A DNA stretch of 64,000 nucleotides from a bacterium (lineage in GTDB: Bacteria > Planctomycetota > UBA1135 > GCA-002686595). Of this stretch, positions 1,313-51,706 are shown piece by piece. The stretch is from contig JAAELL010000252.1 in the NCBI GenBank assembly GCA_024226735.1, positions 1 to 64,000 of the forward strand. The letters run 5' to 3'. The first letter of the stretch is position 1. Every line of letters begins with the position of its first letter. A program made the translations under genes and the position numbers. The notes under the pieces are model-generated. The model was not told the origin of the DNA. It was given only the letters and a program-made list of their open reading frames with translations, and did no database searches.

Positions 1313-1324
1313 GGATTCGATCCC

Positions 1325-26700: not shown

Positions 26701-26801
26701 TGATGGCTGGCGAGACTTGGAACTTCCAGGCCTGGTACCGCGATCTCAACCCCGGCTCGACGTCCAACTTCACCGACGCCGTTTCCGTCGCGTTCCAGTA
26801 G
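23712..26801 (+). CDS. Secreted beta-helix + FG-GAP protein with shared C-terminal domain
   Basis: A 1,029-residue protein. A signal peptide (about 1-21, ending LAAPLAAQ) is followed by a right-handed parallel beta-helix (about 22-480) with Gly-rich turns such as EGGGVFIEDAAARFYDC, of the polymorphic-membrane/pectate-lyase-like kind, then four to six FG-GAP-like repeats (about 480-855; units like GDQFGVSVSLSGDRLAVGA), a calcium-type Asp/Asn spacer (DCNGNLIADSCDIASG, DFDGDGVPDECQ) and the shared C-terminal domain (about 894-1029; TYCSPNANNSTG, NICLGGSIGRF, ETWNFQAWYRD). Probably cell-surface or released; substrate unknown. Confidence 0.8.
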   Translation: MCSWSRLSAVLPCLLAAPLAAQTTWCVDVTGTPPGSGTQNDPYTSIDFAIAQPATQGGDTVLVAPGTYFEAIDLRGKGLLLRSTDGPESTVLDGGTTRTVVTIANGEPPSLTIEGFTIQHGNAVEGGGVFIEDAAARFYDCVITDNYSVTRGGGVLARNSSVLFGRCAIVDNPGDQFVCAPIDGGGLHAAGGNVVLEECMIAGNVAANGGGTFGPCTVRRSVYINNLGQFGGGASGAASISDSVLAENWGAGYTGEAGFGGGAYQSTLERCFVFDNNARDGGGLLWCTATDCTIAANEVYWHNRDTASPQGGGAANSSLTRCEVYANRANGIMGAEGLGGGVFGGAALECVIYDNEAWIGGGTHETGLVRSTVTRNSASVLGGGAWSGDVSTSILWGNAPDSLDGPLATAVYSDVQGGWPGLGNLDVDPMFWDTVASDFHLRAGSPCIDAGDPALFDPDATRADMGALPFDPNNCEDAETKLVAAGTPGAELGTSVDFDEQWVLAGAQEGDGTSPGSGVAVAFGRPDGAFPGAMTTLAADDGAAGDQFGRDVDLDWPLAVVGAPRADAPGQDAGAVYVFDSFWPVATPAHKLTGSDSGPFDEFGVSVSIDGYYLCAGAHQHNANAGAAYVFTNFGSINEMAKLVGSDTAAGDQFGVSVSLSGDRLAVGAVFDDNASGANAGAVYLFHHVQGQGWIEEAKLTASDGAGGDFFGVAVTLSGDKLLVGAEGVDDHGNVAGAAYVFELVGGTWTEVAKLFGDDLEAGDIFGNAVDLDGDRAIVSARGDDDRGADAGAAYVFLRIAGTWTQEHKLLPSPGAAGDEFSTSVGVNGSWTLVGATADDDGGNGAGAVYLAPNDFADCNGNLIADSCDIASGRSTDFDGDGVPDECQPSIGSTYCSPNANNSTGQPAEIRAIGSDEVLDLDLALVATNLPPDQFGYFLTSQTQGFIAMPGGSQGNICLGGSIGRFNSLSQIFQSGHGVGGLVVDLTQMPVSPPVPVMAGETWNFQAWYRDLNPGSTSNFTDAVSVAFQ

Positions 26802-36646: not shown

Positions 36647-38077
36647 ATGCACCAACCTGCTGTCGTCGTCTCTTGCTTCCTGTTTGCTTCGACCGCTTTC
36701 GGGCAGTGGTCGACCGACTCGCTCTCGGTGCCGCGCGGAAAACTCGCCGCGACGACCGTGGGGACCGAGGCGCTGTTCGCGGGTGGCCTGGGAGGCGGCG
36801 CTACTCACAACACCGTCGATATTTACGACGCCGCTTCGCAGACGTGGTCGGTCGCGTCGCTGTCGCTCCCGCGATCGAGTCTCGCCGCTGCGAGCGCGGA
36901 CGGCAGGGCGTTCTTCGCGGGTGGTCAAGCGCCGGCCGGGCAGTCGTCGCGGGTCGACATCTACGACGCAGCGAGCGGCACCTGGACGACGTCGACGCTG
37001 TCGCAGCCGCGCGATCAGCTGGCCGGGGCCGCAGCGGGCGGCAAGGTCCTGTTCGGCGGAGGGCGCGGCTTCAGCGCCGCCTCCAGCCGCGTCGACATCT
37101 TCGACACCCAGACGAACACTTGGTCGACGGCCGAGCTCTCCGTGCCGCGCTATCGGCTGGCGGCGACGACCGTCGGAGACGTCGTCCTGTTCGCTGGGGG
37201 GACGAGCGGTCACAGCGAGGCTCCGTTCCGCGTGGACCTGTACGACACGGCGACCGGCACGTGGTCGACGGCGACGCTACCCAATCGGCACGCCTACCCC
37301 GTCGCCACCAGCGTGGGGGACGTCGCGTTCTTTGCGGGAGACATCCACCCGAGCCTCTCCGTGGACGGGTACGACGTGCCCAACGGAACCTGGACGACGC
37401 ACGTACGGCCGGGCGGTCGCTTCCGTCTCGCCGGCGCCTCGGTCGGCGCGTTCGCGGTGTTCGCCGGAGGGGCGGGGTCGGGCGTGAACGGAGACGAGGT
37501 CGATCTCTTCGATGCGGCGACCCAGACGTGGACGACGGCGACGCTGAGCGAGCGGCGCTTCTCGCTCGCCGCGACGACGGTGCTCGGGCAGGCGATGTTC
37601 GCCGGTGGGTTGAGGAACTCGGCGTCGTTCGCCACCGTCGACATCTTCACGCCCGACCTCGGCGTGCGCTACTGCTCGCCCGCGAACGTGAACTCGAGTG
37701 GCGTACCGGGCCGGATCTCGGCGGACGGCTCGCTTCTGGTCGACGACCAGGACTTCACGCTGATCGCGGAGAACCTGCCCGCCGGCGAGTTCGGCTACTT
37801 CCTCGTCGGCTCGAACCAGGGCGCCTTCCAGCCGCCGGGCAGCCAGGGAGTCCTGTGCCTCACGTGCGGGTTCCAGGGATGCGCGGGCATCGGCCGCTTC
37901 AATCAAGGGGGGCTGATCATCCAGGGCCCGTCGGGTTCGATCGACGTCGACCTCACGAGCCTGCCGACCTCGCCGCCCACCGCGGTGCAGGCCGGCGAGA
38001 CGTGGAACTTCCAGTGCTGGTTCCGCGACCAGGGCTCCAGCAACTTCACCGACGCGCTTTCCGTCACCTTCTTCTGA
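36647..38077 (+). CDS. Secreted seven-bladed Kelch protein 1 with shared C-terminal domain
   Basis: A 476-residue protein: signal peptide (MHQPAVVVSCFLFASTAFG), seven Kelch-like blades of about 45-50 residues (pattern PRxxLAAxxVGxxxLFAGG...VDIYDAxTGTWSTA) covering about 20-340, then the shared domain (about 343-476) with VRYCSPANVNSSGVPG, EFGYFLVGSNQGAFQPPG, LCLTCGFQGCAGIGRF and ETWNFQCWFRD. A closed beta-propeller suggests binding of carbohydrate or protein outside the cell. First gene of the array; SD-like GAGGAG lies 6 bases before the ATG. Blade 5 is the most diverged. Confidence 0.85.
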   Translation: MHQPAVVVSCFLFASTAFGQWSTDSLSVPRGKLAATTVGTEALFAGGLGGGATHNTVDIYDAASQTWSVASLSLPRSSLAAASADGRAFFAGGQAPAGQSSRVDIYDAASGTWTTSTLSQPRDQLAGAAAGGKVLFGGGRGFSAASSRVDIFDTQTNTWSTAELSVPRYRLAATTVGDVVLFAGGTSGHSEAPFRVDLYDTATGTWSTATLPNRHAYPVATSVGDVAFFAGDIHPSLSVDGYDVPNGTWTTHVRPGGRFRLAGASVGAFAVFAGGAGSGVNGDEVDLFDAATQTWTTATLSERRFSLAATTVLGQAMFAGGLRNSASFATVDIFTPDLGVRYCSPANVNSSGVPGRISADGSLLVDDQDFTLIAENLPAGEFGYFLVGSNQGAFQPPGSQGVLCLTCGFQGCAGIGRFNQGGLIIQGPSGSIDVDLTSLPTSPPTAVQAGETWNFQCWFRDQGSSNFTDALSVTFF

Positions 38078-38081
38078 TCCG

Positions 38082-39530
38082 ATGCATGCACCTCATCTCG
38101 CCACACTGACTCTTCTGCTCACTGCGGCCGCGTCCGGCCAGTGGACGACCGCGAACCTCTCGCAGGCGCGGACTCAGCTCGCGGCGACCAGCGTCGGCAC
38201 CACGGCGTTGTTCGCGGGCGGGATCCACCAGGGCACGCACTACGCGACCGTCGACCTCTACGACGCCAGCACGCGTACCTGGTCGACTGCGACCCTGTCG
38301 GCAGCTCGCTCGGAGCTCGCCGCGGCGAGCGCTGGAGGCAAGGCGCTCTTCGCGGGCGGGCGTAATGCCAACGGACTGCTCTCGCGCGTCGACATCTACG
38401 ACGCCGCGAGCGGGACGTGGTCGACGGCGGAGCTCTCGATCCCGCGCCGCCAGCTCGTCGGAGCGAGCGTGGGCGGGCGCGTGTTCTTCGCGGGAGGAGA
38501 CGACGGTTCGTGGCCGCCCTCGGAGCGCATCGACATCTACGATCCCGTGACGGACACGTGGACGACCGACACGCTCCCGAGGGACCGCCAGCAGTTGGCC
38601 GCGGCGACGTGGGGGGACCTGACGATGTTCGCCGGTGGCGTCCACAGCCAGGGGCCCGTGATCACCGCCTTCATCGACGTGTACGACGCGGCGACGAGCA
38701 CCTGGTCGACCGCGGAGCTCAGCGCGGGCCGCCAGCGACTCGGAGGGACCGCGGTCGCCGGGGTCTTCCTGTTCGCCGGCGGCTCGGAATATGCGGTCTC
38801 CGACGTCGTCGACCTCTTCGACACGGCGACGGAGCAATGGACGTCGACGGTCCTGTCCGAGGCCCGGTACAACCTGGGCGCGACGTCGGTCGGCTCGTTC
38901 GCCGTGTTCGCGGGAGGCCTGCGGCGCCACGACGAGGCCACCGCTGCCGTCGACCTCTACGACGCGAGCAGCGGGACGTGGTCGACGACGACGCTGAGCT
39001 TCGCGCGCAACAACATGGGAGCGACGACGGTCGCTGGACAGGCACTCTTCGCCGGAGGCGCCGCGCCCGGGCTCGGATCCGTCGACACCGTCGACATCTT
39101 CGAACCGGAGCTGGGAGTACGGTATTGCTCACCGGCCAACCCCAACAGCAGTGGCGTCCCCGGCCGGATCTCCGCTGACGGCTCGCTCCTCGTCGCCGAC
39201 CAGGACCTGACGTTGATCGCAGAGGACCTCCCTGCCGGAGAGTTCGGGTACTTCCTCGTCGGCTCGAACCAGGGCGCGTTCCAGCCGCCGGGGAGCCAGG
39301 GGATCCTGTGCCTCACGTGCGGGTTCCAGGGCTGCTCTGGCATCGGCCGCTTCAGCCAGGCGGGGCTCATCATCCAAGGACCGACGGGCTCGATCGACGT
39401 CGATCTCACGAGCCTGCCGCTCTCTCCGCCGGTCGGTGTGCAACCCGGAGAGACGTGGAACTTCCAGTGCTGGTTCCGCGACCAAGGTTCCAACAACTTC
39501 ACCGATGCACTGTCGGTCACATTCTTCTGA
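38082..39530 (+). CDS. Secreted seven-bladed Kelch protein 2 with shared C-terminal domain
   Basis: A 482-residue paralogue of protein 1, starting 4 bases after its stop. Signal peptide MHAPHLATLTLLLTAAASG, then seven blades (for example ARSELAAASAGGKALFAGG and SRVDIYDAASGTWSTAELS) and the C-terminal domain from about residue 345 (VRYCSPANPNSSGVPG, LCLTCGFQGCSGIGRF, ETWNFQCWFRD, ending SVTFF). The domain is almost the same as that of protein 1, whereas the loops between blade strands differ strongly, as expected if loops carry binding specificity. It overlaps the next gene by one base (TGATG). Confidence 0.85.
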   Translation: MHAPHLATLTLLLTAAASGQWTTANLSQARTQLAATSVGTTALFAGGIHQGTHYATVDLYDASTRTWSTATLSAARSELAAASAGGKALFAGGRNANGLLSRVDIYDAASGTWSTAELSIPRRQLVGASVGGRVFFAGGDDGSWPPSERIDIYDPVTDTWTTDTLPRDRQQLAAATWGDLTMFAGGVHSQGPVITAFIDVYDAATSTWSTAELSAGRQRLGGTAVAGVFLFAGGSEYAVSDVVDLFDTATEQWTSTVLSEARYNLGATSVGSFAVFAGGLRRHDEATAAVDLYDASSGTWSTTTLSFARNNMGATTVAGQALFAGGAAPGLGSVDTVDIFEPELGVRYCSPANPNSSGVPGRISADGSLLVADQDLTLIAEDLPAGEFGYFLVGSNQGAFQPPGSQGILCLTCGFQGCSGIGRFSQAGLIIQGPTGSIDVDLTSLPLSPPVGVQPGETWNFQCWFRDQGSNNFTDALSVTFF

Positions 39531-40948
39531 TGCATAGATTCTTCTTTTGTGCCGTGAGCTGCGCTCTCGTTCCCAGTGCCCTCGCGCAGTGGACGACGGA
39601 CACGCTCTCGGTCGCACGCACGCAGCTCGCGGCGACGAGTGTCGAGGGCAAGGCGCTCTTCGCAGGCGGGGTCACGCTCGGGACGTACCACGACACCGTC
39701 GACATCTACGATGCGCAAACGGAAACCTGGTCGACCGCGTCGTTGTCGATCGCGCGGTCCCAGCTCGCAGCGGCGAGCGTCGGTGGGAAGGCTTTCTTTG
39801 CCGGTGGACGCAATCAGGGCGGGCGGTTCGCGCGTGTCGACATCTACGACGCGGCCACCGGCACCTGGTCGACGGCGGGGCTGTCCCAGCCGCGCGCCAG
39901 GCTCGCCGCGGCCGCCGCGGGCGGCAAGGTCCTCTTCGCCGGTGGAGAGGTCACCCTGGGCTCGACGACGCGCGTCGACATCTACGACACACAGACCGAT
40001 ACGTGGACGACGGCCGAGCTCTCCGAGCCGCGCAAGAGCCTGGCGGCGACTGCGGTGGGCGATCTCGTTCTCTTCGGCGGTGGCGATGCGAGCGACCGCG
40101 TCGACATCTACGATACGAGCACGGACACCTGGTCGACGGCATCGCTGTCCATCGCGCGGCACAGTCTAGCGGCGACGAGCGTGGGCGGACTCGCGTTCTT
40201 CGGCGGTGGCTCGGTCGGCGGGGATTCCGTCGACATCATGGACGCGGCGAGCGGCACATGGACGACAGCGACGCTGTCGGTGCCGCGCAGGAAGCTCGCC
40301 GCTACTTCGGTCGGGGCGCTGGCTCTGTTCGCCGGAGGCGCAGGTGGCTTCGGCGCGGGAGACGTGGTGGACATCTTCGACACGGGCACCCAGACGTGGT
40401 CGACATCGAACCTGAGCGTGGCGCGCCAGAGCCTGGCTGCGACGACGGTGCTGGGTCGCGTGATGTTCGCTGGAGGTTCCGTCGAGCAGGGCGGCATCTT
40501 CGACACGGTCGACATCTTCGAGCCCGAGCACGGCGTGCGCTACTGCTCGCCCGCGAACCCCAACAGCAGTGGTGCCCCGGGGCGCATCGCGTCACACGGT
40601 TCGCTCGTCGTATCCGAGCAGAGCTTCACTTTGGCCGCGGCGGACCTTCCCGTCGGGGAGTTTGGCTACTTCCTCGTCGGGTCGGGCCAGGGGACGGTTC
40701 AGCCACCCGGTAGTGACGGCGTCCTCTGCCTCGTGTGCACGTTTCAAGGCTGCGGCGGAATCGGTCGTTTCAACCAAGCGGGCCGCATCATCCAAGGGCC
40801 GGTTGGCTCGATCGATGTCGACCTCTCACATTTGCCCATGTCTCCGCCCGTCGCCGTGCAGCCGGGCGATACGTGGAACTTCCAGTGCTGGTACCGCGAC
40901 CTGGGCTCGAGCAACTTCACCGATGCCATCTCGGTGACCTTCATCTGA
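39530..40948 (+). CDS. Secreted seven-bladed Kelch protein 3 with shared C-terminal domain
   Basis: A 472-residue paralogue. The ATG at 39530 overlaps the upstream TGA and gives the signal peptide MHRFFFCAVSCALVPSALA; the longer frame upstream is antisense-like filler. Seven blades are regular and short-looped, then the C-terminal domain with VRYCSPANPNSSGAPG, LCLVCTFQGCGGIGRF and DTWNFQCWYRD. Compared with neighbours the CGFQGC motif has become CTFQGC, keeping the cysteines. Confidence 0.85.
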   Translation: MHRFFFCAVSCALVPSALAQWTTDTLSVARTQLAATSVEGKALFAGGVTLGTYHDTVDIYDAQTETWSTASLSIARSQLAAASVGGKAFFAGGRNQGGRFARVDIYDAATGTWSTAGLSQPRARLAAAAAGGKVLFAGGEVTLGSTTRVDIYDTQTDTWTTAELSEPRKSLAATAVGDLVLFGGGDASDRVDIYDTSTDTWSTASLSIARHSLAATSVGGLAFFGGGSVGGDSVDIMDAASGTWTTATLSVPRRKLAATSVGALALFAGGAGGFGAGDVVDIFDTGTQTWSTSNLSVARQSLAATTVLGRVMFAGGSVEQGGIFDTVDIFEPEHGVRYCSPANPNSSGAPGRIASHGSLVVSEQSFTLAAADLPVGEFGYFLVGSGQGTVQPPGSDGVLCLVCTFQGCGGIGRFNQAGRIIQGPVGSIDVDLSHLPMSPPVAVQPGDTWNFQCWYRDLGSSNFTDAISVTFI

Positions 40949-40952
40949 CCCG

Positions 40953-42392
40953 ATGCACAGACTTCTCATCCTTGCGTTGTCCTGTTGGTTCGCCCCGGCG
41001 GCCACCGGCCAATGGTCGACAGCGACTCTCTCGCAGCCGCGCGCCCAACTCGCCGCGACAACCGTCGGCACGCACGCGATCTTCGCCGGGGGCGTCTCGA
41101 ACGGCGCCCAGAGCGCCGTGGTCGACCTCTACGACGCGAGCACGCAGACCTGGTCGACGGCGACGCTGTCGATGGCGCGGTCCCAACTCTCGGCGGTGAG
41201 TGCCGGCGGCAAGGCGGTCTTCGCCGGGGGGCGCACGGCCGCGGGGCCGGTGGCGAGAGTCGACATCTACGACGCGGCGAGTGCGACCTGGTCGACGGCG
41301 GAGCTCTCTGCACCGCGGAGACAGATGGCGGCGGCAAGTGCCGGTGGGGTGCTGCTCTTCGCCGGTGGCGCCACTCCGAGCTCGGCGGCCTCCGATCGGG
41401 TCGATATCTACGATCCCCAGGCGGGGACGTGGACGACCGAGACACTGCCCATCGGCCGGTGGTCGCTCGCCGCGGCGGCGATCGGGGACCGCGTGTTCTT
41501 CGGTGGGGGCGCGGCCAACCCGAGCACGATGCAGGTCGACGTGTACGACACGGCGAGCGGGTCCTGGTCGGCCGAGGTTCTGTCGGAGGCGCGGCTGCAG
41601 CTGACGGCGACGTCCCTGTTCGGTCAGGCGATCTTTGCGGGCGGGGCGACGGGGATCTCCAGCGCGACCGTGGACCTCTACGACGCGGCGAGCGGCACGT
41701 GGACGACAGCGGAACTCTCCGACGGGCGCTTCAATCTGGCCGCTACGACGGTCGGCCCGTTCGCCGTCTTCGGCGGGGGGCGGTCGGACTTCCTGATCGA
41801 TTCCGACGTGGTTGACCTCTTCGATGCGAGCACCGCGACGTGGACGACGGCGACGCTCAGCGTCGAGCGCGCCGGCCTGGCGGCGACGACCGTGGGTGGG
41901 CGGGCGTTCTTCGCCGGAGGGGGCAACATCTCGTCGGGCTCGTCCGACGTCGTGGACATCTTCGAGCCCGAGCTCGGCGTCCGCTACTGCTCGCCGGCGA
42001 ACCCGAACAGCAGCGGCGTCCCCGGTCGCATCTCGGCCGACGGCTCGCTGTTCGTCGACGACCAAGACGTGACGCTGATTGCCGAGGATCTGCCCGCTGG
42101 CGAGTTCGGCTACTTCCTCGTCGGCGCGAACCAGGGAGCGTTCCAGCCGCCCGGAAGTGACGGGGTCCTGTGCCTCGCGTGCGGCTTCCAGGGCTGTGGC
42201 GGAATCGGACGCTTCAACCAGGCGGGGCTCATCATCCAAGGGCCGTCGGGCTCGATCGCCGTCGACCTCTCGAACCTGCCGACCTCGCCGCCGGTCGCGG
42301 TGCAAGCGGGCGAGACATGGAACTTTCAGTGCTGGTACCGCGACCAGGGTGCGAGCAACTTCTCCGATGCCGTGTCGCTGACCTTCTTGTAA
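40953..42392 (+). CDS. Secreted seven-bladed Kelch protein 4 with shared C-terminal domain
   Basis: A 479-residue paralogue starting 4 bases after the previous stop, signal peptide MHRLLILALSCWFAPAATG. Seven blades (MARSQLSAVSAGGKAVFAGG and similar) precede the C-terminal domain: LGVRYCSPANPNSSGVPG, LCLACGFQGCGGIGRF, ETWNFQCWYRD, ending SLTFL. The last ~265 bases are nearly identical to the end of the next gene while the blades differ, pointing to recent duplication or gene conversion of the domain. Confidence 0.85.
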   Translation: MHRLLILALSCWFAPAATGQWSTATLSQPRAQLAATTVGTHAIFAGGVSNGAQSAVVDLYDASTQTWSTATLSMARSQLSAVSAGGKAVFAGGRTAAGPVARVDIYDAASATWSTAELSAPRRQMAAASAGGVLLFAGGATPSSAASDRVDIYDPQAGTWTTETLPIGRWSLAAAAIGDRVFFGGGAANPSTMQVDVYDTASGSWSAEVLSEARLQLTATSLFGQAIFAGGATGISSATVDLYDAASGTWTTAELSDGRFNLAATTVGPFAVFGGGRSDFLIDSDVVDLFDASTATWTTATLSVERAGLAATTVGGRAFFAGGGNISSGSSDVVDIFEPELGVRYCSPANPNSSGVPGRISADGSLFVDDQDVTLIAEDLPAGEFGYFLVGANQGAFQPPGSDGVLCLACGFQGCGGIGRFNQAGLIIQGPSGSIAVDLSNLPTSPPVAVQAGETWNFQCWYRDQGASNFSDAVSLTFL

Positions 42393-42396
42393 TCAC

Positions 42397-43803
42397 ATGC
42401 ACAGGCTTACCACCATCGCTGCCGCGATCCTCGCGACTCCCGCCTTCGGTCAATGGACGACCGCGAACCTGTCCCAGCCGCGCGCCCAGCTCGCCGCGAC
42501 CAGTGTGGGGTCGAAGGCGCTGTTCGCCGGTGGCATCGACAATGGGTCGCACTCGAACGTCGTCGACGTCTACGACGCGAGCACGGGGACGTGGTCGACC
42601 GCGGCGTTGTCGCTCGCGCGCTCCGAGCTCGCGGCGGCGAGTGCGGGAGGCAAGGCGTTGTTCGCAGGCGGGCGGAACGCGAATAGTGTGGTCTCGCGCG
42701 TCGACATCTACGACGAAGTGAGCGGGACCTGGACGACGGCGGAGCTCTCGAGTCCGCGCCGCCAAATCGCGGCGGCGGCCGTCGGTGGGCGTGTGCTCTT
42801 CGCTGGCGGAGAAGGGGCCGACCGCGTCGATATCTACGACCCGGGGACGGGGACGTGGACGACGGCTTCACTCTCGGTGGCGCGCCCTCGCATCGCCGCA
42901 GCGGTGTCGGGCGACCTCGCCCTGTTCGCTGGCGGGGTTTTTGCCGTGGACGTCGTCGACCTCTACGACGCTTCGACTGACACCTGGTCGACATCGACTC
43001 TGTCGGCAGGCCGCCACAGCCTCGCCGGCGTTTCGGTTGGGAACCTCTTCATGTTCGGCGGTGGCGCCCCGACGACGGCGGTTGTCGACATCTTCGATGC
43101 GACGAGCGGGGTTTGGACGACCTCTGCGCTCTCCCAGGCGCGCTCCAACCTGGCGGCAGCCTGCGTAGGCTCGGCCGCTCTGTTCGCCGGTGGGCAACTG
43201 AGTAGCAGCGCCCGTTCCGACACCGTCGACATCTTCGACGCGAGCGATCAGACGTGGTCGACGAGCACCTTGAGCGTCGCGCGCGGCAAGCTGGCCGCGA
43301 CGTCCGTCGCGGGGCGGATCCTGTTCGCAGGTGGAGGCGCGGGCGGAGGCTCGTCGGACGTCGTCGACATCTACGAGCCCGAGCTCGGTGCGCGCTACTG
43401 CTCGCCCGCGAACCCCAACAGCAGCGGAGTCCCCGCTCGCATCTCGGCGGATGGATCGCTGTTCGTCGTCGACCAGGACCTGACGCTGATCGCAGAGGAC
43501 CTGCCCAGCGGAGAGTTCGGCTACTTCCTCGTCGGCGCAAACCAGGGAGCGTTCCAGCCGCCCGGAAGTGACGGGGTCTTGTGCCTCGCGTGCGGCTTCC
43601 AAGGCTGTGGCGGAATCGGACGCTTCAACCAGGCGGGGCTCATCATCCAAGGACCGTCGGGCTCGATCGCCGTCGACCTCTCGAATCTGCCGACCTCACC
43701 GCCGGTCGCGGTGCAGGCGGGCGAGACGTGGAACTTCCAGTGCTGGTACCGCGACCAGGGCTCGAGCAACTTCTCCGACGCAGTGTCGCTGACCTTCTTG
43801 TAG
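42397..43803 (+). CDS. Secreted seven-bladed Kelch protein 5 with shared C-terminal domain
   Basis: A 468-residue paralogue, 4 bases after protein 4, signal peptide MHRLTTIAAAILATPAFG. Seven blades are followed by the C-terminal domain (LGARYCSPANPNSSGVPA, LCLACGFQGCGGIGRF, ETWNFQCWYRD, SLTFL). It has the shortest interblade loops of the seven-bladed copies (for example blade 4 LALFAGGVFAVDVVDLYD). Its blades 1-3 are closest to those of protein 2, but its domain is closest to protein 4, a mosaic pattern. Confidence 0.85.
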   Translation: MHRLTTIAAAILATPAFGQWTTANLSQPRAQLAATSVGSKALFAGGIDNGSHSNVVDVYDASTGTWSTAALSLARSELAAASAGGKALFAGGRNANSVVSRVDIYDEVSGTWTTAELSSPRRQIAAAAVGGRVLFAGGEGADRVDIYDPGTGTWTTASLSVARPRIAAAVSGDLALFAGGVFAVDVVDLYDASTDTWSTSTLSAGRHSLAGVSVGNLFMFGGGAPTTAVVDIFDATSGVWTTSALSQARSNLAAACVGSAALFAGGQLSSSARSDTVDIFDASDQTWSTSTLSVARGKLAATSVAGRILFAGGGAGGGSSDVVDIYEPELGARYCSPANPNSSGVPARISADGSLFVVDQDLTLIAEDLPSGEFGYFLVGANQGAFQPPGSDGVLCLACGFQGCGGIGRFNQAGLIIQGPSGSIAVDLSNLPTSPPVAVQAGETWNFQCWYRDQGSSNFSDAVSLTFL

Positions 43804-43820
43804 TTAGACCTCTCTCCATC

Positions 43821-45068
43821 ATGAAACTCCACACGTCCGTCTTGACCATGCTCCTCGCTGCCGTCGCCGGCGGTCAGGTACCGGAGAACGAGATCCTCAT
43901 CAGCTCCCGAGCGGGTGGGTGTGACGGCCTGCGCCACTACCGCCTCGATGGGACGCTAGTCACGGAAGCGACCGTGGGCTCGGGCCAGACTTGGTCGGGT
44001 GCGGCGATCGCCCAGGACGGCAGCTGGGTCACCGCGTACGCGACGCCGCGGCTGTTGGCGTTCTTCGATCCGACGACCGGCGTCGAGACGATGACCTTCC
44101 CGATTCCCGAGGTCACGGGTGGTCCCGCGGATGTCGCGATCTTCGCGGACGGGACGTTCGTCGTCGCGGACCACGCCGCACGCGTGCACTTGTACTCGCC
44201 GGCCGGCGCGTATCTCGGGACGTGGACGACGCCCGGCATGGACAACTGCTGGGGTCTGCTCGTCGATGCGAACGACGAGCTATGGGTCACTGAGCACGAC
44301 ATCTTCCGTATTTGGCACTTCGCGCGCGACGGCACGTTCCTAGGCGTCATCGACACGGGCACGCGCGAAGTGGGGGACGTCGACGTCGCGCCGGATGGGA
44401 CCCTGTGGACGATCGCCGAAGACAACGGGCTCGTGCGCGCGTACACGGCCGCGGGTGCGCAGGTCGCGAACTTCCCGACTGCCGCCGGCGGCAATGCGAT
44501 GGGCATCGCGGTCGCGCCGGACGGGACGGTTTGGGTGACGGGTGGAAACGGCGTCCCGCTGTTCAACTACGACGCGAGCGGAAGCCTGCTCGGTCAGATT
44601 TCGATCGCGTGCAACGCGCGGTTCATCACGATTCCGAAGTTCAACATCGGCGTTCGTTACTGTTCACCCGCGGCTACGAACTCGAGCGGCATGCCGGCGC
44701 GGCTCTCGGTCGAGGGACGCTCGCTGATCTCGTTCAACGACGTGACGCTCCATGTCGAGGACATGCCCGCGGGCGAGTTCGGCTACTTCCTCGTCGGCTC
44801 GAATCAAGGGACGTTCATGCCGCCGGGGAGCCAAGGGCTCTTGTGTCTGTCGTGTTCGGGCTTCCAGGGATGCGCGGGCATCGGCCGCTACAACCAAGCG
44901 GGCCACATCATCCAGGGGCCGACCGGGAGCATTTCCATCGATCTGAACAGCCTGCCGCTCAGTCCACCCGTCGCCGTGCTGCCTGGGCAGACGTGGAACT
45001 TCCAGTGTTGGTTTCGTGACTTGGGCTCGAACAACTTCAGCGATGCCGTCGCCGTGACATTTCAATGA
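43821..45068 (+). CDS. Secreted NHL/SMP30-like propeller protein with shared C-terminal domain
   Basis: A 415-residue protein with signal peptide (MKLHTSVLTMLLAAVAGG). The propeller is not Kelch: units such as WGLLVDANDELWVTEHD, VGDVDVAPDGTLWTIAEDN and MGIAVAPDGTVWVTGGNG are NHL/SMP30-like six-bladed style. From about residue 277 it carries the same domain as its neighbours (IGVRYCSPAATNSSGMPA, LCLSCSGFQGCAGIGRY, QTWNFQCWFRD, AVTFQ). It sits in the middle of the Kelch array, 17 bases after protein 5, so a different propeller has been joined to the common tail. Confidence 0.85.
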   Translation: MKLHTSVLTMLLAAVAGGQVPENEILISSRAGGCDGLRHYRLDGTLVTEATVGSGQTWSGAAIAQDGSWVTAYATPRLLAFFDPTTGVETMTFPIPEVTGGPADVAIFADGTFVVADHAARVHLYSPAGAYLGTWTTPGMDNCWGLLVDANDELWVTEHDIFRIWHFARDGTFLGVIDTGTREVGDVDVAPDGTLWTIAEDNGLVRAYTAAGAQVANFPTAAGGNAMGIAVAPDGTVWVTGGNGVPLFNYDASGSLLGQISIACNARFITIPKFNIGVRYCSPAATNSSGMPARLSVEGRSLISFNDVTLHVEDMPAGEFGYFLVGSNQGTFMPPGSQGLLCLSCSGFQGCAGIGRYNQAGHIIQGPTGSISIDLNSLPLSPPVAVLPGQTWNFQCWFRDLGSNNFSDAVAVTFQ

Positions 45069-45106
45069 ATGCGCCAGTCCAATCCGGCGCCCCGTACCGA
45101 GGGACC

Positions 45107-46525
45107 ATGAAGCGACTCCTGTGTGCGGCGGCTCCGTTCCTCCTCACCTCGGTCGCGCTTGGCCAGTGGTCGACCGCGTCGCTCTCGCAGCCGCGTGCGC
45201 AGCTGGGTGCGACGAGCGTCGGAACGAAGGCACTGTTCGCGGGTGGCATCTCGAACGGCACTGCGAGCGCCGTCGTCGACATCTACGATGCGAGCACGCG
45301 TACGTGGTCGACGGCTTCGCTTTCGCTCGCGCGCTCGAAGATCGCTGCCGGCAGTGCCGGCGGCAAGGCCGTCTTCGCGGGCGGTCGCCGCACCGGAGGG
45401 CCGATCACGGCGCGCGTCGACATCTACGACGATGCGAGCGGCACGTGGTCGACGGACGAGCTGCCGATGCCGAAGGAGGCTGCGACCGCCGTCACCATCG
45501 GCGGGAGGATCTTCTTCGCCAGCGGATCACCGTCTCCCTTCGACCACATCGACATCTACGACCCTGCGACGGGGACCTGGACGACGGATGTGCTGCCGAG
45601 TGGTGGCGCGAGCGCAGCTGGCGTCGTTGGGCACTAGGGGGTCTTCACGCGGGGCTCCGACGTCGACATCTACGATGCGACGACCGACACGTGGACGCTG
45701 GACGCGCTCTCGAGCCCCCGGGGCTTCCTCTCGGGGACGGCGGTTCTGGACCGCGTCCTCTTCGCGGGAGGGGAGAATGTGAACCTGGACGCCGACGACA
45801 CGGTCGACATCTGGGACGCTTCGAGCGGGACCTGGACGATCGCGAATCTGTCCTCGCCGCGCATGCTCATGACGGCGACGTCCGTGGGCTCGTTCGCGGT
45901 GTTCGCGGGTGGGATCGACGATCTCTTCGGTGCGCCGTCCGACTTCGCCGACATCTACGATGTGGCCACCGACACCTGGACGGTCGCGCCAATCTCCGCG
46001 GGGCGCCGGGGCATGGCAGCGACGTCAGTCGCTGGCCAGGCGTTCTTCGCAGGAGGAGCTGCCGGTGGAGCATCGTTCGACGTCGTCGACATCTTCACAC
46101 CCGAGCTCGGGGTGCGCTACTGCACGCCCGCCCACGACAACTCGAGCGGTGCGCCGGCCACGATCTCAGCCGACGGCTCCTTGTTCGTGGCCGATCAGGA
46201 CGTGACGCTGGTCGCCGAGGATCTGCCCGTGGGCGAGTTCGGCTACTTCCTCGTCGGGGCGAACCAGGGGCAGTTCCAGCCGCCGGGGAGCCAGGGGATC
46301 CTGTGTCTCGCGTGCGGCTTCCAGGGCTGCTCGGGCATCGGGCGCTTCAGCCAAGCGGGGTTCATCATCCAGGGGCCAACGGGCTCGATCGACGTCGATC
46401 TCTCGGGCCTGCCCACGTCGCCGCCGGTCGCTGTGCAGGCGGGCGAGACGTGGAACTTCCAGTGTTGGTACCGTGATCAGGGCTCCAGCAACTTCACCGA
46501 TGCGGTGTCCGTGACCTTTCTATGA
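45107..46525 (+). pseudogene. Kelch protein 6, interrupted by an in-frame UAG
   Basis: The frame from ATG 45107 (SD-like GAGGGA; signal peptide MKRLLCAAAPFLLTSVALG) to 46525 encodes a full seven-bladed Kelch protein with the C-terminal domain (VRYCTPAHDNSSGAPA, LCLACGFQGCSGIGRF, ETWNFQCWYRD), but TAG at 45635-45637 interrupts it in blade 4. The reading frame is the same before and after, and alignment to Kelch protein 7 has no gap: the stop falls where paralogues have Leu (DLVLF versus H*GVF). A single base change (for example TTG to TAG), readthrough or a sequencing error could explain it. The full length would be 472 residues. Confidence 0.85.
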
Positions 46526-46532
46526 GCGCGTC

Positions 46533-47933
46533 ATGAAGATCCTCCACTCCGCAGCTTCGATCCTGTTCGCCTCGACGGCCTTCGGCCAGTGGTCGACCGC
46601 GACGCTCTCGCAGCCGCGTGCACAGCTGGGTGCGGCCAGCGTGGGGACGAAGGCGCTTTTTGCGGGCGGACTCTCCAACGGCGCCGTGAGTGCCGTCGTC
46701 GACATCTACGACGCGAACACGCGCACTTGGTCGACGGCGTCGCTGTCGCTCGCGCGCACGCGGGTCGCCGGTGCCAGCGCGGCGGGCAAGGCCGTGTTCG
46801 CCGGTGGGCGCAGCGCGGCGGGCTCCCTGGTCTCGCGCGTCGACATCTACGACGCGGCGAGCAGTACGTGGTCGACGTCCGAGATGCCGATACCGCGCCA
46901 GGTACTCGCGACGAGCTCCGGAGGCAGGATCTTCTTCGCGGGCGGGAGCCGCGTCGACATCTTCGACCCCGCGACAGGTGCCTGGACCTTGGAGATGATG
47001 CCGACAACCTACGCTTCGACCGTTGTCGCCGCCGGGTCGCTCGTGCTGTTCTCGTCCGGGAACGAGGTCGATCTCTTCGACGTGACGACGGACACGTGGT
47101 CGTCGGACGCGCTCTCCTCTGCGCGCACGTTTCCTGCGGGGACGGCGGTCCTGGGCCGCGCTTTCTTCGGGGGCGGGGAGGACCCGCAGACGTGGATGAC
47201 CGTCGACACGGTCGACATCTACGACGTTGCGACGGGCACGTGGACGATCGCGAGCTTGTCCATGCCGCGCCTCCGCATCGTGGCGACTTCCGTCGGCTCG
47301 CTCGCGATCTTCGCGGGTGGTCTGGACTCCTTCTCCGGCCCGCCGGTCGATGTCGTCGACATCTACGATGTGGCGACCGACACATGGACGGTTGCGACGC
47401 TCACGTTGGGGCGTCGCGGAATGGCTGCGACCACGGTCGCGGGCCAGGTGCTCTTCGCCGGCGGGGGCGCTGGGGGCGTATCGTCCGACGTCGTCGACAT
47501 CTTCACGCCCGAGCTCGGCGTACGCTACTGCACGCCCGCCAACGACAACTCGAGTGGCGCGCCGGCCAGGATCGCGGCGGACGGCTCGCTCTTCGTGGCC
47601 GACCAGGACTTGACGTTGATCGCCGAGGACCTACCCGCGGGCGAGTTCGGCTACTTCCTCGTCGGTGCGAATCAGGGCCAGTTCCAGCCGCCCGGTAGCC
47701 AGGGGGTCCTGTGCCTCGCGTGCGGGTTTCAGGGCTGCTCGGGCATCGGGCGTTTCAGCCAAGCGGGGTTCATCATCCAGGGGCCGACGGGTTCGATCGA
47801 CGTCGACCTCACGGGCCTGCCCACGTCGCCGCCGGTAGCGGTGCAAGCGGGCGAGACGTGGAACTTCCAGTGCTGGTACCGCGACCAGGGCTCGAGCAAC
47901 TTCACCGACGCCGTGTCCGTGACTTTCCTCTAA
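46533..47933 (+). CDS. Secreted seven-bladed Kelch protein 7 with shared C-terminal domain
   Basis: A 466-residue protein and the closest paralogue of the interrupted gene before it; both have LGVRYCTPA and DNSSGAPA where other copies have YCSPA and NPNSSGVPG. Signal peptide MKILHSAASILFASTAFG. Blade 4 (TTYASTVVAAGSLVLFSSGN) has lost the usual PRxxLAA start. C-terminal domain: LCLACGFQGCSGIGRF, ETWNFQCWYRD, SVTFL. Gap to the upstream stop is 7 bases and to the next gene 3 bases. Confidence 0.85.
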   Translation: MKILHSAASILFASTAFGQWSTATLSQPRAQLGAASVGTKALFAGGLSNGAVSAVVDIYDANTRTWSTASLSLARTRVAGASAAGKAVFAGGRSAAGSLVSRVDIYDAASSTWSTSEMPIPRQVLATSSGGRIFFAGGSRVDIFDPATGAWTLEMMPTTYASTVVAAGSLVLFSSGNEVDLFDVTTDTWSSDALSSARTFPAGTAVLGRAFFGGGEDPQTWMTVDTVDIYDVATGTWTIASLSMPRLRIVATSVGSLAIFAGGLDSFSGPPVDVVDIYDVATDTWTVATLTLGRRGMAATTVAGQVLFAGGGAGGVSSDVVDIFTPELGVRYCTPANDNSSGAPARIAADGSLFVADQDLTLIAEDLPAGEFGYFLVGANQGQFQPPGSQGVLCLACGFQGCSGIGRFSQAGFIIQGPTGSIDVDLTGLPTSPPVAVQAGETWNFQCWYRDQGSSNFTDAVSVTFL

Positions 47934-47936
47934 CCG

Positions 47937-49079
47937 ATGCGACCTCTCCTGCTGGTAGTCTTCCTCGCCCTGGCTCCATTGGCCCACGGGCAGTGGACGA
48001 CCGCGACCCTCTCCCAGCCCCGCGCTCAACTCGCAGCGACGAGCGTCGGCACGAAGGCGTTGTTCGGCGGCGGGATCGAGGCGGGTACGCCGAGTGCGGT
48101 CGTCGACATCTACGACGCGAGCACCGGGGCTTGGTCGACGGCAGCACTCTCACTCCCGCGCGCGCAGCTCGCCGCGGCGAGCGCGGACGGCGTCGCGCTC
48201 TTCGTCGGCGGACGCACTGCACAAGGGCCTGTCGCGACAGTGGATCTCTACGACGACGCGAGCGGTACCTGGTCGACGAGCGCCTTGTCGAGTACGCGCG
48301 TGCGCCACGCTGCGACGTCCGTGGCCGGATGGATCCTGTTTGGTGGGGGCACCTCCAACTCTTCGGGTGACGGCATCAAGGTGGAGATCCTGGACACGGT
48401 CACCGGTGCCTGGACGCTGGCGTCGCTTTCCGAGGAGCGCTACCACCTCGCCGCGACGACGGTCGGTTCGTTCGCCCTCTTCGCGGGAGGGAGCACTTCG
48501 ATCGGTCGGTCGGATGCCGTCGACATCTTCGATGCCCGCTCCGCGACGTGGACGACGGCGGCGCTCAGCTTCGCACGCCAAAGGCTCGCCGCGACGACGC
48601 TCGGCGGGCAGGCGTTCTTCGCCGGCGGTGCCGACTCCTCGGGCGCGTACGACGTTGTGGACATCTTCACCCCCGAGCTTGGGGAACGGTTCTGTTCGCC
48701 GGCGAACGACAACAGCACCGGCGTCCCCGCACGCATTTTGGCGCAGGGCTCACCCGTCGCCGTCGACGACGACTTGACGCTGATCGCCGAGGACTTGCCT
48801 GCCGGTGAGCTCGGCTATTTCCTCGTTGGTCCGAGCCAGGGGCAGGTGCAGCCGCCGGGCAGCGATGGGGTCCTGTGTCTCGCTGGCAACATCGGCCGTT
48901 TCAACCAGGCGGGGTTCATCATCCAAGGGCCGTCCGGTTCGATCGACGTCGACCTCACGGGCCTGCCCACGTCGCCGCCGGTGGCGGTGCAGCCGGGCGA
49001 GACGTGGAACTTCCAGTGCTGGTACCGCGATCAGGGCTCGAGCAACTTCACCGACGCCGTGGCGATCACTTTTCTGTGA
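47937..49079 (+). CDS. Secreted five-bladed Kelch protein 8 with shared C-terminal domain
   Basis: A 380-residue protein, last of the array. Signal peptide MRPLLLVVFLALAPLAHG. Only five Kelch blades are present (QPRAQLAA, LPRAQLAA, STRVRHAA, EERYHLAA, FARQRLAA), two fewer than the paralogues. The C-terminal domain lacks the CGFQGC insert: VLCLAGNIGRFNQAG, then ETWNFQCWYRD and AITFL. It overlaps the convergent redoxin-PQQ gene by 14 bases. Confidence 0.83.
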   Translation: MRPLLLVVFLALAPLAHGQWTTATLSQPRAQLAATSVGTKALFGGGIEAGTPSAVVDIYDASTGAWSTAALSLPRAQLAAASADGVALFVGGRTAQGPVATVDLYDDASGTWSTSALSSTRVRHAATSVAGWILFGGGTSNSSGDGIKVEILDTVTGAWTLASLSEERYHLAATTVGSFALFAGGSTSIGRSDAVDIFDARSATWTTAALSFARQRLAATTLGGQAFFAGGADSSGAYDVVDIFTPELGERFCSPANDNSTGVPARILAQGSPVAVDDDLTLIAEDLPAGELGYFLVGPSQGQVQPPGSDGVLCLAGNIGRFNQAGFIIQGPSGSIDVDLTGLPTSPPVAVQPGETWNFQCWYRDQGSSNFTDAVAITFL

Positions 49080-50823
49080 GGTCGACGCAGACGAGCTCCT
49101 CGTCGTTGCGCAGGAAGACGTGCCTGTAGGCGAACGCCGGGTGCGCCCAGCAGACGCCCTCGCGCTGGTTCAGCTGGGCGAGCGTCGGCTCGATCAGCTT
49201 CACGCGGTCTTTCTCCTCGAAGCCCTCGGGCGAGAGGCGCGCGATGACGAGCTCGCCGCGCTCGTTGAACATCCACGTCGTTTCGCCGTTCTGCACGAAG
49301 TGGATGTTCGCCCAGCGCGCGCGGGGGACGGCCGTCCGGTCCTCCCAGACGCGTGAGCCGTCCGCGAGCTTCAGGCAGCGCAGCTCCCCGTAGCTGTCGA
49401 CGCCGTAAATGTGCTCGCCCAGGATTAGGGGCGTCGAGATGATGCTGTGCAGGCCGTCGGTGCTGCGCTCGTTCTGGCCTTTGCGGCGCCAGACTTCCTC
49501 CACGGCGAGCTCGTCCTGCGCGAGGCGCAGGAGGACGCAGCCGTCGTAGAAACCCGTCACGAAGAGCTCGTCCCCGTGCATGACGGGTGTCGCGACGCCG
49601 AGCGGCATCTTGCTCGCCGCGAACGGATGCTCCCAGAGCAGCTTGCCCGTCTTGGGGGCGACGCCGAGGATGCGGTCGCCCGTCCAGCACACGACGACGC
49701 GCTGGCCCGCTTGCGTGACGACGATCGGCGCCGCGTAGTTGCCGCGGTCGTCGAAGGCCTTCCAGCGCTCCTCGCCCGTCTTCGCGTCGAACGCGACCAG
49801 GTACGCGCCCTCGGCCCCGCTCACCGGAACGATCAAGAGCCCGTCCTCGAGCAGAGGAGAGGCGGCGATGCCCCAGATCGGCATCCGGATTCCGTACGCC
49901 TCGTTCAGCGCGTGGCTCCAGAGCACGTCGCCCTTGGCCGCGTCGAAGCAGAACAGGTGGCCCATCGAGCCGAGCGAGTACGCGCGTCCATCCTCGACGA
50001 GCACCGCGCAGCGCGGGCCCGCTTCGTAGCGGACCTTCTCGTAGACGCAGTCGTAGGTGTGCGACCAGACGCTCGCACCCGTCTTCCAGTCGAAGCAGAG
50101 GACGCGCTCGATCTCGCTGGGCTCCTCGGAGCGGTCCATCACGTACACGCGACCGTCGGCGACGGTGGGACCGGTGTAGCCGCTGGCGATCTTCGTGCGC
50201 CAGCGCACCTTCGGGCCGTCCTCGGGAAAGCTCGCGAGCACGCCCTCCTCGCTCCAGGTCCCGTCGCGCCCCGGGCCGCGCCATTGTGGCCAGTCGTCGC
50301 CCTCTTGCTGGGAGAAAGTCGTCTTGAGCTTGCCGACCGACTCGTAGTGGTCGTCGATCCTCCCGCGGTACACGAGCCGGTCCTCGACGTCGACGACGAA
50401 CGCCTCGGGCACGTGCGTTGGGCCGAGTCGCTGGGCGAGGTTGCCCGAGGCGTTGAACAGCACCGTCAGCGCGAGCTCGTATTCGGCCCGGTGCTCGCGC
50501 GCCGCGACGCTCGTCACGCTCGGGTCGGAGATCACGCCGTCGAGCTCGACGTCCAGCTCGCGCGCGATGGCGAGCAGCTCGTTCAGCCGCGGGACGTAGC
50601 GGTTCGCGATCGGGCAGGTCGTGTCCAGGAACACGAGGGCGAAGGGGCGCGCGCCCGCGCCGAGCGTGTGCACCTTGCCGTCGAGCGCCAAGGCACGGAC
50701 GCCTCGAGTGCTCGAAACCGAGGGTATCGCTTGGGCGGCGCCCTGCGCTGGCGGGGCGGCGGTGACGGCGGTGACGGTGGTGACGAGTGCGCTCCAGAGC
50801 GCGATGGCGACCTTGATCTTCAT
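49066..50823 (-). CDS. Redoxin-PQQ beta-propeller fusion, secreted
   Basis: A 585-residue protein with a signal peptide (about 1-30). Residues 45-165 look like a thioredoxin-fold redoxin (FALVFLDTTCPIANRYVPRL; a single Cys at the active-site position, so a CxxC pair is absent), followed by about 180-580 of PQQ/BamB-like propeller repeats (WRTKIASGYTGPTVADGRVY, FDAKTGEERWKAFDDRGN). Such fusions are frequent in planctomycetes; the function is not established. Its start codon abuts the opposite-strand remnant at 50822. Confidence 0.78.
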   Translation of the reverse strand: MKIKVAIALWSALVTTVTAVTAAPPAQGAAQAIPSVSSTRGVRALALDGKVHTLGAGARPFALVFLDTTCPIANRYVPRLNELLAIARELDVELDGVISDPSVTSVAAREHRAEYELALTVLFNASGNLAQRLGPTHVPEAFVVDVEDRLVYRGRIDDHYESVGKLKTTFSQQEGDDWPQWRGPGRDGTWSEEGVLASFPEDGPKVRWRTKIASGYTGPTVADGRVYVMDRSEEPSEIERVLCFDWKTGASVWSHTYDCVYEKVRYEAGPRCAVLVEDGRAYSLGSMGHLFCFDAAKGDVLWSHALNEAYGIRMPIWGIAASPLLEDGLLIVPVSGAEGAYLVAFDAKTGEERWKAFDDRGNYAAPIVVTQAGQRVVVCWTGDRILGVAPKTGKLLWEHPFAASKMPLGVATPVMHGDELFVTGFYDGCVLLRLAQDELAVEEVWRRKGQNERSTDGLHSIISTPLILGEHIYGVDSYGELRCLKLADGSRVWEDRTAVPRARWANIHFVQNGETTWMFNERGELVIARLSPEGFEEKDRVKLIEPTLAQLNQREGVCWAHPAFAYRHVFLRNDEELVCVDLTEK

Positions 50824-51706
50824 GGATCCTCCGGCCCCAAGCTACTCGATGACACGTCTGCCGTTCGTGATCGCCCCCGCCGCCGCCCTGACCGGTGACC
50901 GGATCGTGATCGGCGATCAGCACGACAACGAAGCCGGGCCGCTCGCGGGTGCGGTCTACGTCTACGAGCGCGTTGCGGGTGACTGGTCGTTTGCCGCCAA
51001 GCTCACCCCCGACCCTGCGCACTACCCGGGCCAGATGGGGACGACGATTGCCATCCGCGGCACGACGATCGCTACGGGCGTGCCGCGCAGCGGCGAGTTC
51101 CAACACGACGGGGGCGTCCAGCTCTTGCGCGAGCTGCCCGGCGGATGGGCGCGGGGCGCGTATCTCGTGGGGACGCGACTGGAGCGTAGCGAGCTCGGCT
51201 GGGGGCTAGCGCTCTCCGACCGGCATCTCGCCGCGGGAGCCCGCATGCTCGACGACGGAATCGGGAACACCGGTGGCGCGTTCACCTACCGCATGGACTG
51301 CGCGATCGGGACCAGCTACTGCGGACCGGCCGTTCCCAACTCGAGTGGCGCGTCAGCGTCGATGGCGGCCGAGGGCAGCGCGCGGATCGTCGATCGGGAC
51401 GTGGTCCTCGTCGCGAGCGGTCTGCCGGTCTCGGAGCTCGGGTACTTCCTCGTCGCGCGCCGCCAGGGGCTGGCCCAGCCGGCGGGCTCGGCGGGGTTTC
51501 TGTGCCTGGGCGGCGAAGTCGGTCGCTTCCGCGCGATCGCGGAGATCATCGAAGGGCCAGAGGCGAGTCTGCGCATCGATGTTGGCGCGCTTCCCCTCGC
51601 GGGTGCGCCCGGCGCCGCAGTGGGAGAGACGTGGAACTTCCAGTGCTGGTTCCGGGACGGCTCGACGAGCAGTTTTACCGACGCTGTTGCGATCCGATTC
51701 GAGTGA
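50822..51706 (+). pseudogene. 5'-truncated FG-GAP protein with shared C-terminal domain
   Basis: The open frame gives about 294 residues: two to three FG-GAP-like units (LTGDRIVIGDQHDNEAG, GAVYVYERVAGDWSFAAKL) and the C-terminal domain (TSYCGPAVPNSSGASA, FLCLGGEVGRF, ETWNFQCWFRD). It has no signal peptide, its first FG-GAP unit starts mid-motif, and its possible starts (50822 or 50849) leave no promoter space because the opposite-strand gene begins at 50823. All family members elsewhere are secreted, so I read it as a fragment cut off by a rearrangement; translation from 50849 is not excluded. Confidence 0.65.

What the first reader, a model, noticed from the sequence alone, without database searches (positions are those of the whole stretch)
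36647..49079. Nine tandem co-directional propeller genes with gaps of 0-38 bases
Seen: stop-to-start distances are about 4, overlap, 4, 4, 17, 38, 7 and 3 bases, so the array is probably one transcript. Each gene has its own signal peptide. The blades are regular and the loops variable, resembling an expanded recognition repertoire rather than simple gene dosage.
Basis: seen in the sequence. Interest (0 to 1): 0.6.

Follow-up and report, generated by a model that had tools for sequence, protein, structure and literature searches.

The report
Tandem propeller genes with shared tail
Nine neighbouring genes in an uncultured planctomycete encode exported propeller-shaped proteins that all end in the same domain, which is absent from the domain libraries searched, recurs hundreds of times in the same genome, and may act as a tag for sending proteins to the cell surface.

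Summary
The array is real: nine co-directional genes at 36647-49079, with gaps of 4, -1, 4, 4, 17, 38, 7 and 3 bases, each with a signal peptide. Corrections: eight are kelch propellers, the sixth is NHL/SGL-type, the seventh has an in-frame TAG (45635), and the ninth has about five blades. The more important feature was missed. All nine end in the same ~137-residue domain, which matches nothing in Pfam or NCBIfam and is confidently predicted as an Ig-like sandwich (pLDDT 91.5). It sits at the extreme C-terminus in 104 of 106 strong cases. Its core motif occurs 340 times in this 9-Mb genome (reversed-motif control 0). It is nearly confined to one family of Planctomycetota and follows kelch, NHL, FG-GAP, LamG, protease and lectin modules. 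Within the array propellers diverge while tails stay conserved, and kelch and tail trees disagree, suggesting recombination at the module boundary. Blade loops evolve at dN of about dS: compatible with a binding repertoire, not proof of one. Best reading: exported binding heads on a lineage-specific C-terminal sorting/attachment domain, working like (but not shown to be) type IX secretion tails. About half of the tagged proteins start with glutamine after signal-peptide cleavage, like the Bacteroidetes Q-rule. The partner machinery is unknown.

The parts
36647..38077 (+). g1: signal peptide + 7-blade kelch + C-terminal domain (CTD at 37658-38074)
38082..39530 (+). g2: signal peptide + 7-blade kelch + CTD (39111-39527)
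39530..40948 (+). g3: signal peptide + 7-blade kelch + CTD (40529-40945); start overlaps g2 stop by one base
40953..42392 (+). g4: signal peptide + 7-blade kelch + CTD (41973-42389)
42397..43803 (+). g5: signal peptide + 7-blade kelch (28 strands, mostly pLDDT >85 in model) + CTD (43384-43800)
43821..45068 (+). g6: signal peptide + NHL/SGL/Vgb-type propeller (not kelch) + CTD (44646-45065)
45107..46525 (+). g7: kelch + CTD (46106-46522), interrupted by an in-frame TAG at 45635
46533..47933 (+). g8: signal peptide + 7-blade kelch + CTD (47514-47930; this CTD was modelled, pLDDT 91.5)
47937..49079 (+). g9: signal peptide + about 5-blade kelch + CTD (48678-49076)
50822..51706 (+). Another CTD gene next to the array: FG-GAP part + CTD (51305-51703); true start uncertain
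23712..26801 (+). Further CTD gene in the window, 1029 aa, signal peptide, CTD at 26382-26798

Best explanation
The array is a local expansion of exported proteins built from three parts: a Sec signal peptide, a propeller head, and a ~137-residue Ig-like C-terminal domain (CTD). SHOWN: the anatomy; the CTD's sequence conservation, extreme C-terminal position, massive copy number and lineage restriction; its fusion to many unrelated extracellular modules; stronger conservation of CTD than of heads; and disagreement of head and CTD trees. INFERRED: the CTD is a sorting/attachment signal. After Sec export and signal-peptide removal it would fold in the periplasm, be recognised by a dedicated outer-membrane system not identified here, and bring the head to the cell surface, much as type IX secretion tails do in Bacteroidetes. 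INFERRED: the kelch heads bind extracellular ligands through the variable 2-3 loops, and the array enlarges the set of heads by tandem duplication, blade loss and head/tail recombination. The array is probably co-transcribed with translational coupling (spacing only).
For: Shared CTD on all nine genes. No Pfam or NCBIfam match for 46 of 46 diverse CTDs at E<=0.01. Strict C-terminal place: 104 of 106 strong hits end 0-1 residue before the stop; 96 of 101 in loci of named records and 55 of 57 in own-genome loci end within 2. Copy number: 170+170 motif matches in the own genome, reversed control 0; HMM searches hit the 150-per-genome cap at E about 1e-43 and 1e-51. Signal peptides: 101 of 114 open frames pass a crude hydrophobicity test. 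Diverse heads: 27 of 99 kelch, then Vgb, SGL, NHL, LamG, FG-GAP, reprolysin, C-lectin, subtilase; 72 Pfam families in all. Fold: pLDDT 91.5, pTM 0.88, Ig/FnIII-like; the PorU chain from residue 1005 on is among the top VIA matches, Z 7.5. Two near-invariant cysteines suit an oxidising compartment. CTD dN/dS 0.06-0.27, kelch 0.33-0.60. g4/g5 CTD 96% against kelch 60% aa identity, with fewer synonymous differences in the CTD (about p 7e-7, approximate site counts). Kelch data reject {g1,g2} (AU p 0.0033); CTD data reject {g2,g5} (p 0.00035) and {g2,g4,g5,g7,g8,g9} (p 0.021), which kelch supports at 98.9. Lineage: 59 of 81 family genomes; in a phylum draw 17 of 392, 16 of them in this family. Glutamine follows the signal peptide in 45 of 88 tagged against 16 of 160 untagged proteins in loci of named records.
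Against: No export or anchoring machinery was found: SprA_N 0 of 81 genomes, though no positive control rang. The PorU-type match is inside the range of a merely common fold, and Foldseek gave nothing below E 0.001. Exceptions exist: L042 and three similar genes (L114, L117, L150) carry the CTD directly after the signal peptide with further sequence behind it, odd for a C-terminal export signal. 22 of 81 family genomes show no motif match. Loop dN/dS about 1 does not show selection for recognition. Groups for the AU tests were chosen after trees were seen. No expression, localisation or binding data exist.
Confidence: 0.52

Rival explanations
1. The CTD is a functional binding or building domain (for example a glycan-, matrix- or S-layer-binding Ig-like module, or a self-assembly unit), not a sorting signal. 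Proteins reach the outside by another route and the CTD holds them in the envelope or matrix.
For: Ig/FnIII-like fold with neighbours that include sugar-binding domains such as CBM56 and beta-GRP. N-terminal placements in L042, L114, L117 and L150 work for a binding module but not for a C-terminal signal. Strong purifying selection on the whole domain.
Against: Near-strict extreme C-terminal place over more than 150 genes and no protein with two strong copies; binding modules are usually found internally and repeated (recalled). Fusion to enzymes and propellers of many sorts.
Confidence: 0.33
2. The array is ordinary neutral birth-and-death of tandem duplicates; loop variation is relaxed constraint, with no selected repertoire.
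For: Loop dN about dS; one array member has a nonsense codon and one member of the second array, C175, an interrupted frame; blade loss in g9.
Against: Eight of nine frames stay open and kelch dN/dS is 0.33-0.60 with W, R, F, GG and VDIYD positions kept, so most heads are under selection for folding. Two large arrays plus dispersed copies in one genome (38 match rows) against at most 11 match rows in any other family genome.
Confidence: 0.35
3. The array is a recombination cassette for surface variation: repeated blades and conserved CTDs let heads be swapped, giving switching within a population.
For: Head/tail tree conflict and CTD similarity between neighbours; blade-number change in g9; an NHL head inside the kelch array.
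Against: All frames have their own starts and signal peptides, with no silent-cassette layout; a recombinase was not looked for; no strain data.
Confidence: 0.1

Closest known systems
Type IX secretion system (T9SS) C-terminal domains of Bacteroidota
   Same: Signal peptide at the front, Ig-like beta-sandwich at the extreme C-terminus, many unrelated heads in one genome. In RgpB, loss of two C-terminal residues gives an inactive variant kept in the periplasm (passage of PMC11285876), which would explain such strict placement.
   Different: No match to any NCBIfam or Pfam model; different phylum; SprA_N not found in 81 genomes, without a positive control; longer (about 137 aa) with two near-invariant cysteines.
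PEP-CTERM/exosortase and LPXTG/sortase signals
   Same: A C-terminal signal repeated on many secreted proteins of one genome; PEP-CTERM median 8, maximum 65 copies in its first description (abstract of PMC1569441).
   Different: Those are short motif + transmembrane helix + basic tail. Here there is no hydrophobic helix, no basic tail and no LPxTG in 101 CTDs, and the motif count is 340.
Kelch beta-propellers, including recently amplified ones (Pereira and Lupas 2022, PMC9218822, passages)
   Same: Four-stranded blades, seven per propeller in the model, kelch Pfam hits, blade-number change and disrupted members.
   Different: Here whole genes, not only blades, are repeated in tandem, all tied to one lineage-specific C-terminal domain.
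Bacteroidetes Q-rule (PMC5837995, PMC10653852)
   Same: Glutamine at +1 after signal peptidase I cleavage in about half of tagged proteins; one type I glutaminyl cyclase gene in the own genome.
   Different: Planctomycetota, a phylum not mentioned in the main text of either paper (term searches). Type I cyclase is present in only 24 of 81 family genomes and shows no tie to the CTD. No mass spectrometry.

Membership tests
Kelch beta-propeller | Repeated kelch motif and four-stranded blades closing a propeller | tested here: met
   Pfam kelch families in g1, g2, g8, g9 and the g7 fragment; 28 strands = 7 x 4 in the g5 model, mostly pLDDT >85; g3-g5 by alignment. g6: not kelch.
T9SS CTD | Match to T9SS C-terminal domain sequence models | tested here: not met
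   0 of 46 CTDs match any NCBIfam or Pfam family at E<=0.01. That these libraries hold the T9SS tail models is recalled.
T9SS CTD | Ig-like beta-sandwich at the extreme C-terminus of Sec-exported proteins | tested here: met
   Fold; position; signal peptides.
T9SS CTD | SprA translocon in the same genome | tested here: inconclusive
   SprA_N 0 of 81 genomes, but the search rang in none of 14 control genomes.
T9SS CTD | Structural homology to a known T9SS CTD beyond a common fold | tested here: inconclusive
   PorU chain 6za2 Z 7.5 over 96 residues, rmsd 2.7, in the middling range.
PEP-CTERM | PEP motif, C-terminal transmembrane helix, basic tail | tested here: not met
   101 CTDs: hydropathy window (19 aa) in the last 50 residues at most 1.48; 0-1 K/R in the last six.
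LPXTG/sortase | LPxTG-like motif before a hydrophobic stretch | tested here: not met
   0 of 101 CTDs.
Q-rule | Glutamine at +1 in about half or more of signal peptidase I substrates | tested here: inconclusive
   Tagged proteins 45 of 88 (named records) and 25 of 48 (own), untagged 16 of 160 and 6 of 34, with a home-made cleavage predictor. Reached in tagged proteins only; the untagged set is contaminated by membrane proteins.
Single operon | One transcript over all nine genes | not testable with these tools
   Spacing only; consensus scans uninformative.

The most novel reading that the evidence does not exclude
This family of Planctomycetota (the one holding the 'Saltatorellus' strain Poly30) has its own protein-export pathway, independent of but convergent with the Bacteroidetes type IX system: an undescribed Ig-like C-terminal signal domain on up to hundreds of proteins per genome, with N-terminal glutamine protection of the cargo and an outer-membrane translocon still to be found. 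Tandem propeller arrays are its cargo libraries, renewed by recombination at the head/tail boundary.
Probability: 0.33. Interest if true: 0.85.

Novelty: new variant of a known kind. Interest (0 to 1): 0.63.

Why it matters
If the tail is a sorting signal, a whole group of planctomycetes moves up to hundreds of proteins to its surface by a route for which I found no description, and the tail gives a handle for finding the machine: pull-down, or co-inheritance across the 59 positive and 22 negative family genomes. It also gives a ready annotation for hundreds of unnamed proteins and a natural experiment in how binding heads diversify on a fixed tail.

Tried and rejected
Rejected: 'nine kelch genes' (g6 is NHL-type); sortase or exosortase signal; simple gene dosage (head identity 47-65%). 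Led nowhere: sigma-70/terminator scan at or below chance; Rfam and tRNA scans of the window, nothing; PDB sequence search with the CTD profile, best E 0.44; Foldseek against PDB, nothing below 0.001; SprA_N, 0 of 81 but no positive control. Shared upstream motif: the enriched 8-mers are tails of preceding CTD genes, the commonest in 16 of 86 upstream stretches, not a promoter. Type I glutaminyl cyclase as a marker of the CTD: no tie, for example CTD-rich G009 and G016 lack it and motif-free G015 and G084 have it. The CTD could not be placed in the full-length model (pLDDT under 50 after residue 330; only 7 rows). Upstream flanking gene: in 5 of 5 relatives read, no kelch or CTD gene within the ~1.5 kb flanks held; wider synteny not read. 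Literature: nine of ten searches used. I found no paper describing this domain. Only listings, passages and one section were read, and the library lacks most subscription journals; of the 31 papers only ten were listed and one opened.

Dropped rows: A3 used 73 of the 80 loci, leaving out L167, L169, L170, L172, L174, L176 and L177. The Pfam scan took 99 of the 114 open frames (CTD bits >=100, head >=40 residues). The 114 frames were not hand-curated and include a few frame fragments. g6 is outside all kelch trees and dN/dS pairs. Three kelch genes seen (C349, C414, C141) were not fetched and are not in the trees. Kelch gene number in the own genome is a lower bound (28 of 108 candidates scored).

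Full report
CHECK OF THE OBSERVATION. Each begins with a signal peptide of about 20 residues, usually followed by Q. Eight are kelch propellers by Pfam or by alignment to those that are. The sixth matches NHL, SGL, Vgb_lyase and Mala_s_1-like instead. The seventh carries an in-frame TAG at 45635 with the frame otherwise intact. The ninth has about five repeats against about seven elsewhere. A model of g5 shows 28 strands, seven blades, mostly above pLDDT 85.

THE SHARED TAIL. All nine proteins end in a ~137-residue domain, 71-90% identical to that of g1. The FG-GAP gene just downstream (51305-51703) has it too, at 47%. Forty-six diverse copies match no Pfam-A or NCBIfam model at E<=0.01. A degenerate DNA pattern for the W-[NHY]-F-x-x-W-[YFH]-R-D core finds 170+170 matches, with none for the reversed pattern. 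In the fetched loci, 104 of 106 strong copies end within one residue of the stop codon; of the other two, one is cut by the locus end and one (L042) is followed by a long open frame. On a second set from named records it is 96 of 101: one is cut by the locus end, three (L114, L117, L150) carry the domain directly behind the signal peptide with about 190 residues after it, and one (L139) has 15 extra residues. No protein held two strong copies.

STRUCTURE. With 81 rows (8 window, 73 of 80 loci), AlphaFold2 gives pLDDT 91.5 and pTM 0.88 and a nine-strand sandwich. Foldseek gives no PDB match below E 0.001. The second look by VIA-align lists mostly Ig- and FnIII-like domains at Z 6.6-8.1, among them the part of the PorU chain 6za2 from residue 1005 on at Z 7.5, rmsd 2.7, 96 residues; that this stretch holds PorU's T9SS C-terminal domain is recalled, not from a call. 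Z in this range may mean only a common arrangement. The tail has no transmembrane helix, no basic end and no LPxTG motif in 101 copies. Two cysteines are nearly invariant.

HEADS. Of 99 N-terminal parts scanned (of 114 frames), 27 have kelch, 11 Vgb_lyase, 9 SGL, 7 NHL, 5 Laminin_G_3, 4 FG-GAP_3, 3 reprolysin, 3 C-type lectin and 2 subtilase matches, 72 Pfam families in all, overlapping ones included. A crude test finds signal peptides in 101 of 114. The tail thus follows many unrelated extracellular modules.

LINEAGE. Of 41 genomes (own and relatives) 19 have the domain by profile, all in the window's own family. Of 81 family genomes 59 have the motif; the own genome has the most (340), then G092 (144) and G087 (105). 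Of 392 genomes drawn over the phylum 17 have it: 16 in this family and one with a single match elsewhere (G266). PMC11840708 speaks of an OM190/'Saltatorellus' clade (passages). Kelch heads like g5 occur in 19 of 81 family genomes at E<=1e-10; the own genome has 38 match rows, which I count as about 28 genes, any other at most 11 rows. A second array, C175 from about 15.7 to 23 kb, holds five kelch-tail genes with measured gaps of 4, 59 and 2 bases and one interrupted member. In five relatives with the gene upstream of the array, no kelch or tail gene lies within the ~1.5 kb flanks held.

EVOLUTION OF THE ARRAY. Between array members tails are 72-96% and heads 47-65% identical. Nei-Gojobori dN/dS over 28 pairs: tail 0.06-0.27, head 0.33-0.60, 2-3 loops 0.45-2.25 with one pair saturated. 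Over 125 blade units the positions W, L, R, F, GG, VD and D are nearly fixed; the 2-3 loop is the most variable in sequence and runs from 3 to 14 residues. Trees of heads and tails conflict. Heads group {g2,g4,g5,g7,g8,g9} (SH-aLRT 98.9), which tails reject (AU p 0.021). Heads reject {g1,g2} (p 0.0033), the tails do not (p 0.243). Tails reject {g2,g5} (p 0.00035), the heads do not (p 0.466). Heads do not reject {g4,g5} (p 0.136), a pair that tails place together. The groups were chosen after seeing trees. For g4/g5 synonymous differences are also fewer in the tail (0.25 against 0.50, about p 7e-7 with approximate site counts); for g7/g8 the same test gives p 0.30 and for g1/g8 p 0.003. I read this as recombination that swaps or homogenises tails between neighbours while heads diverge; the NHL head in g6 is one more head exchange. 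Loop dN near dS neither shows nor excludes diversifying selection.

HOW IT PROBABLY WORKS. Sec export and removal of the signal peptide, folding of the tail in the periplasm, recognition of the tail by an unknown outer-membrane system, and display or release of the head. Only the anatomy and evolution are shown; recognition, export and ligand binding are inference. The strict end position fits an export signal: in the Bacteroidetes protein RgpB the loss of two terminal residues leaves it in the periplasm (passage of PMC11285876). The N-terminal placements do not fit and keep the binding-domain rival alive.

GLUTAMINE AT THE NEW N-TERMINUS. In loci of named records 45 of 88 tagged proteins with a predicted signal peptide have Q right after the cut, against 16 of 160 untagged ones (Fisher 2e-12); in own-genome loci 25 of 48 against 6 of 34 (p 0.002). 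Earlier counts: 51 of 100 tagged; 37 of 69 and 11 of 20 tagged, against 3 of 37 and 0 of 4 untagged. The Bacteroidetes Q-rule paper reports Q-values above 48% in 332 of 334 Bacteroidetes and low values in most groups it compared, with scattered exceptions (section read); it and the 2023 follow-up do not contain the word Planctomycet (term searches). A type I glutaminyl cyclase is present once in the own genome but in only 24 of 81 family genomes, with no tie to the tail. The cleavage predictor is home-made and the untagged set contains membrane proteins, so this needs SignalP and mass spectrometry.

NOVELTY. C-terminal sorting domains are a known kind; this family, its phylum and its copy number are new to the libraries and papers searched. 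Hence new variant of a known kind.

Noticed in passing
loci L099-L178, window and L039-L078: About half of the tail-bearing proteins have glutamine right after the predicted signal-peptide cut (45 of 88 and 25 of 48), like the Bacteroidetes Q-rule, in a phylum where I found no report of it.
   Followed up: partly
45635 (g7) and G000:C175 array (L039): Each of the two large kelch arrays has one broken member: a nonsense codon in g7, an interrupted frame in the C175 array.
   Followed up: partly
L042:6194-11158; L114:300-1397; L117:5884-6981; L150:5932-6981: Rare genes carry the tail domain near the N-terminus, directly behind the signal peptide, with a further long stretch after it.
   Followed up: no
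window 23712-26801, about 50822-51706, 56087-58138 and minus strand 1-3072: Further genes with a tail domain in the same window, the last two weak (54 and 37 bits).
   Followed up: no
own genome, contigs C21-C183: 18 of 100 tail sites have a same-strand neighbour within 2.5 kb: tail genes with unlike heads sometimes sit in short tandem runs (for example L055, L072).
   Followed up: partly
G000:C593:16343-17077: Single type I glutaminyl cyclase (PF05096, E 1.5e-92).
   Followed up: no
33844-36582: A 912-aa gene ends 64 bases before the array on the same strand; homologues in 13 of 41 genomes, own included, without the array in the five read.
   Followed up: partly
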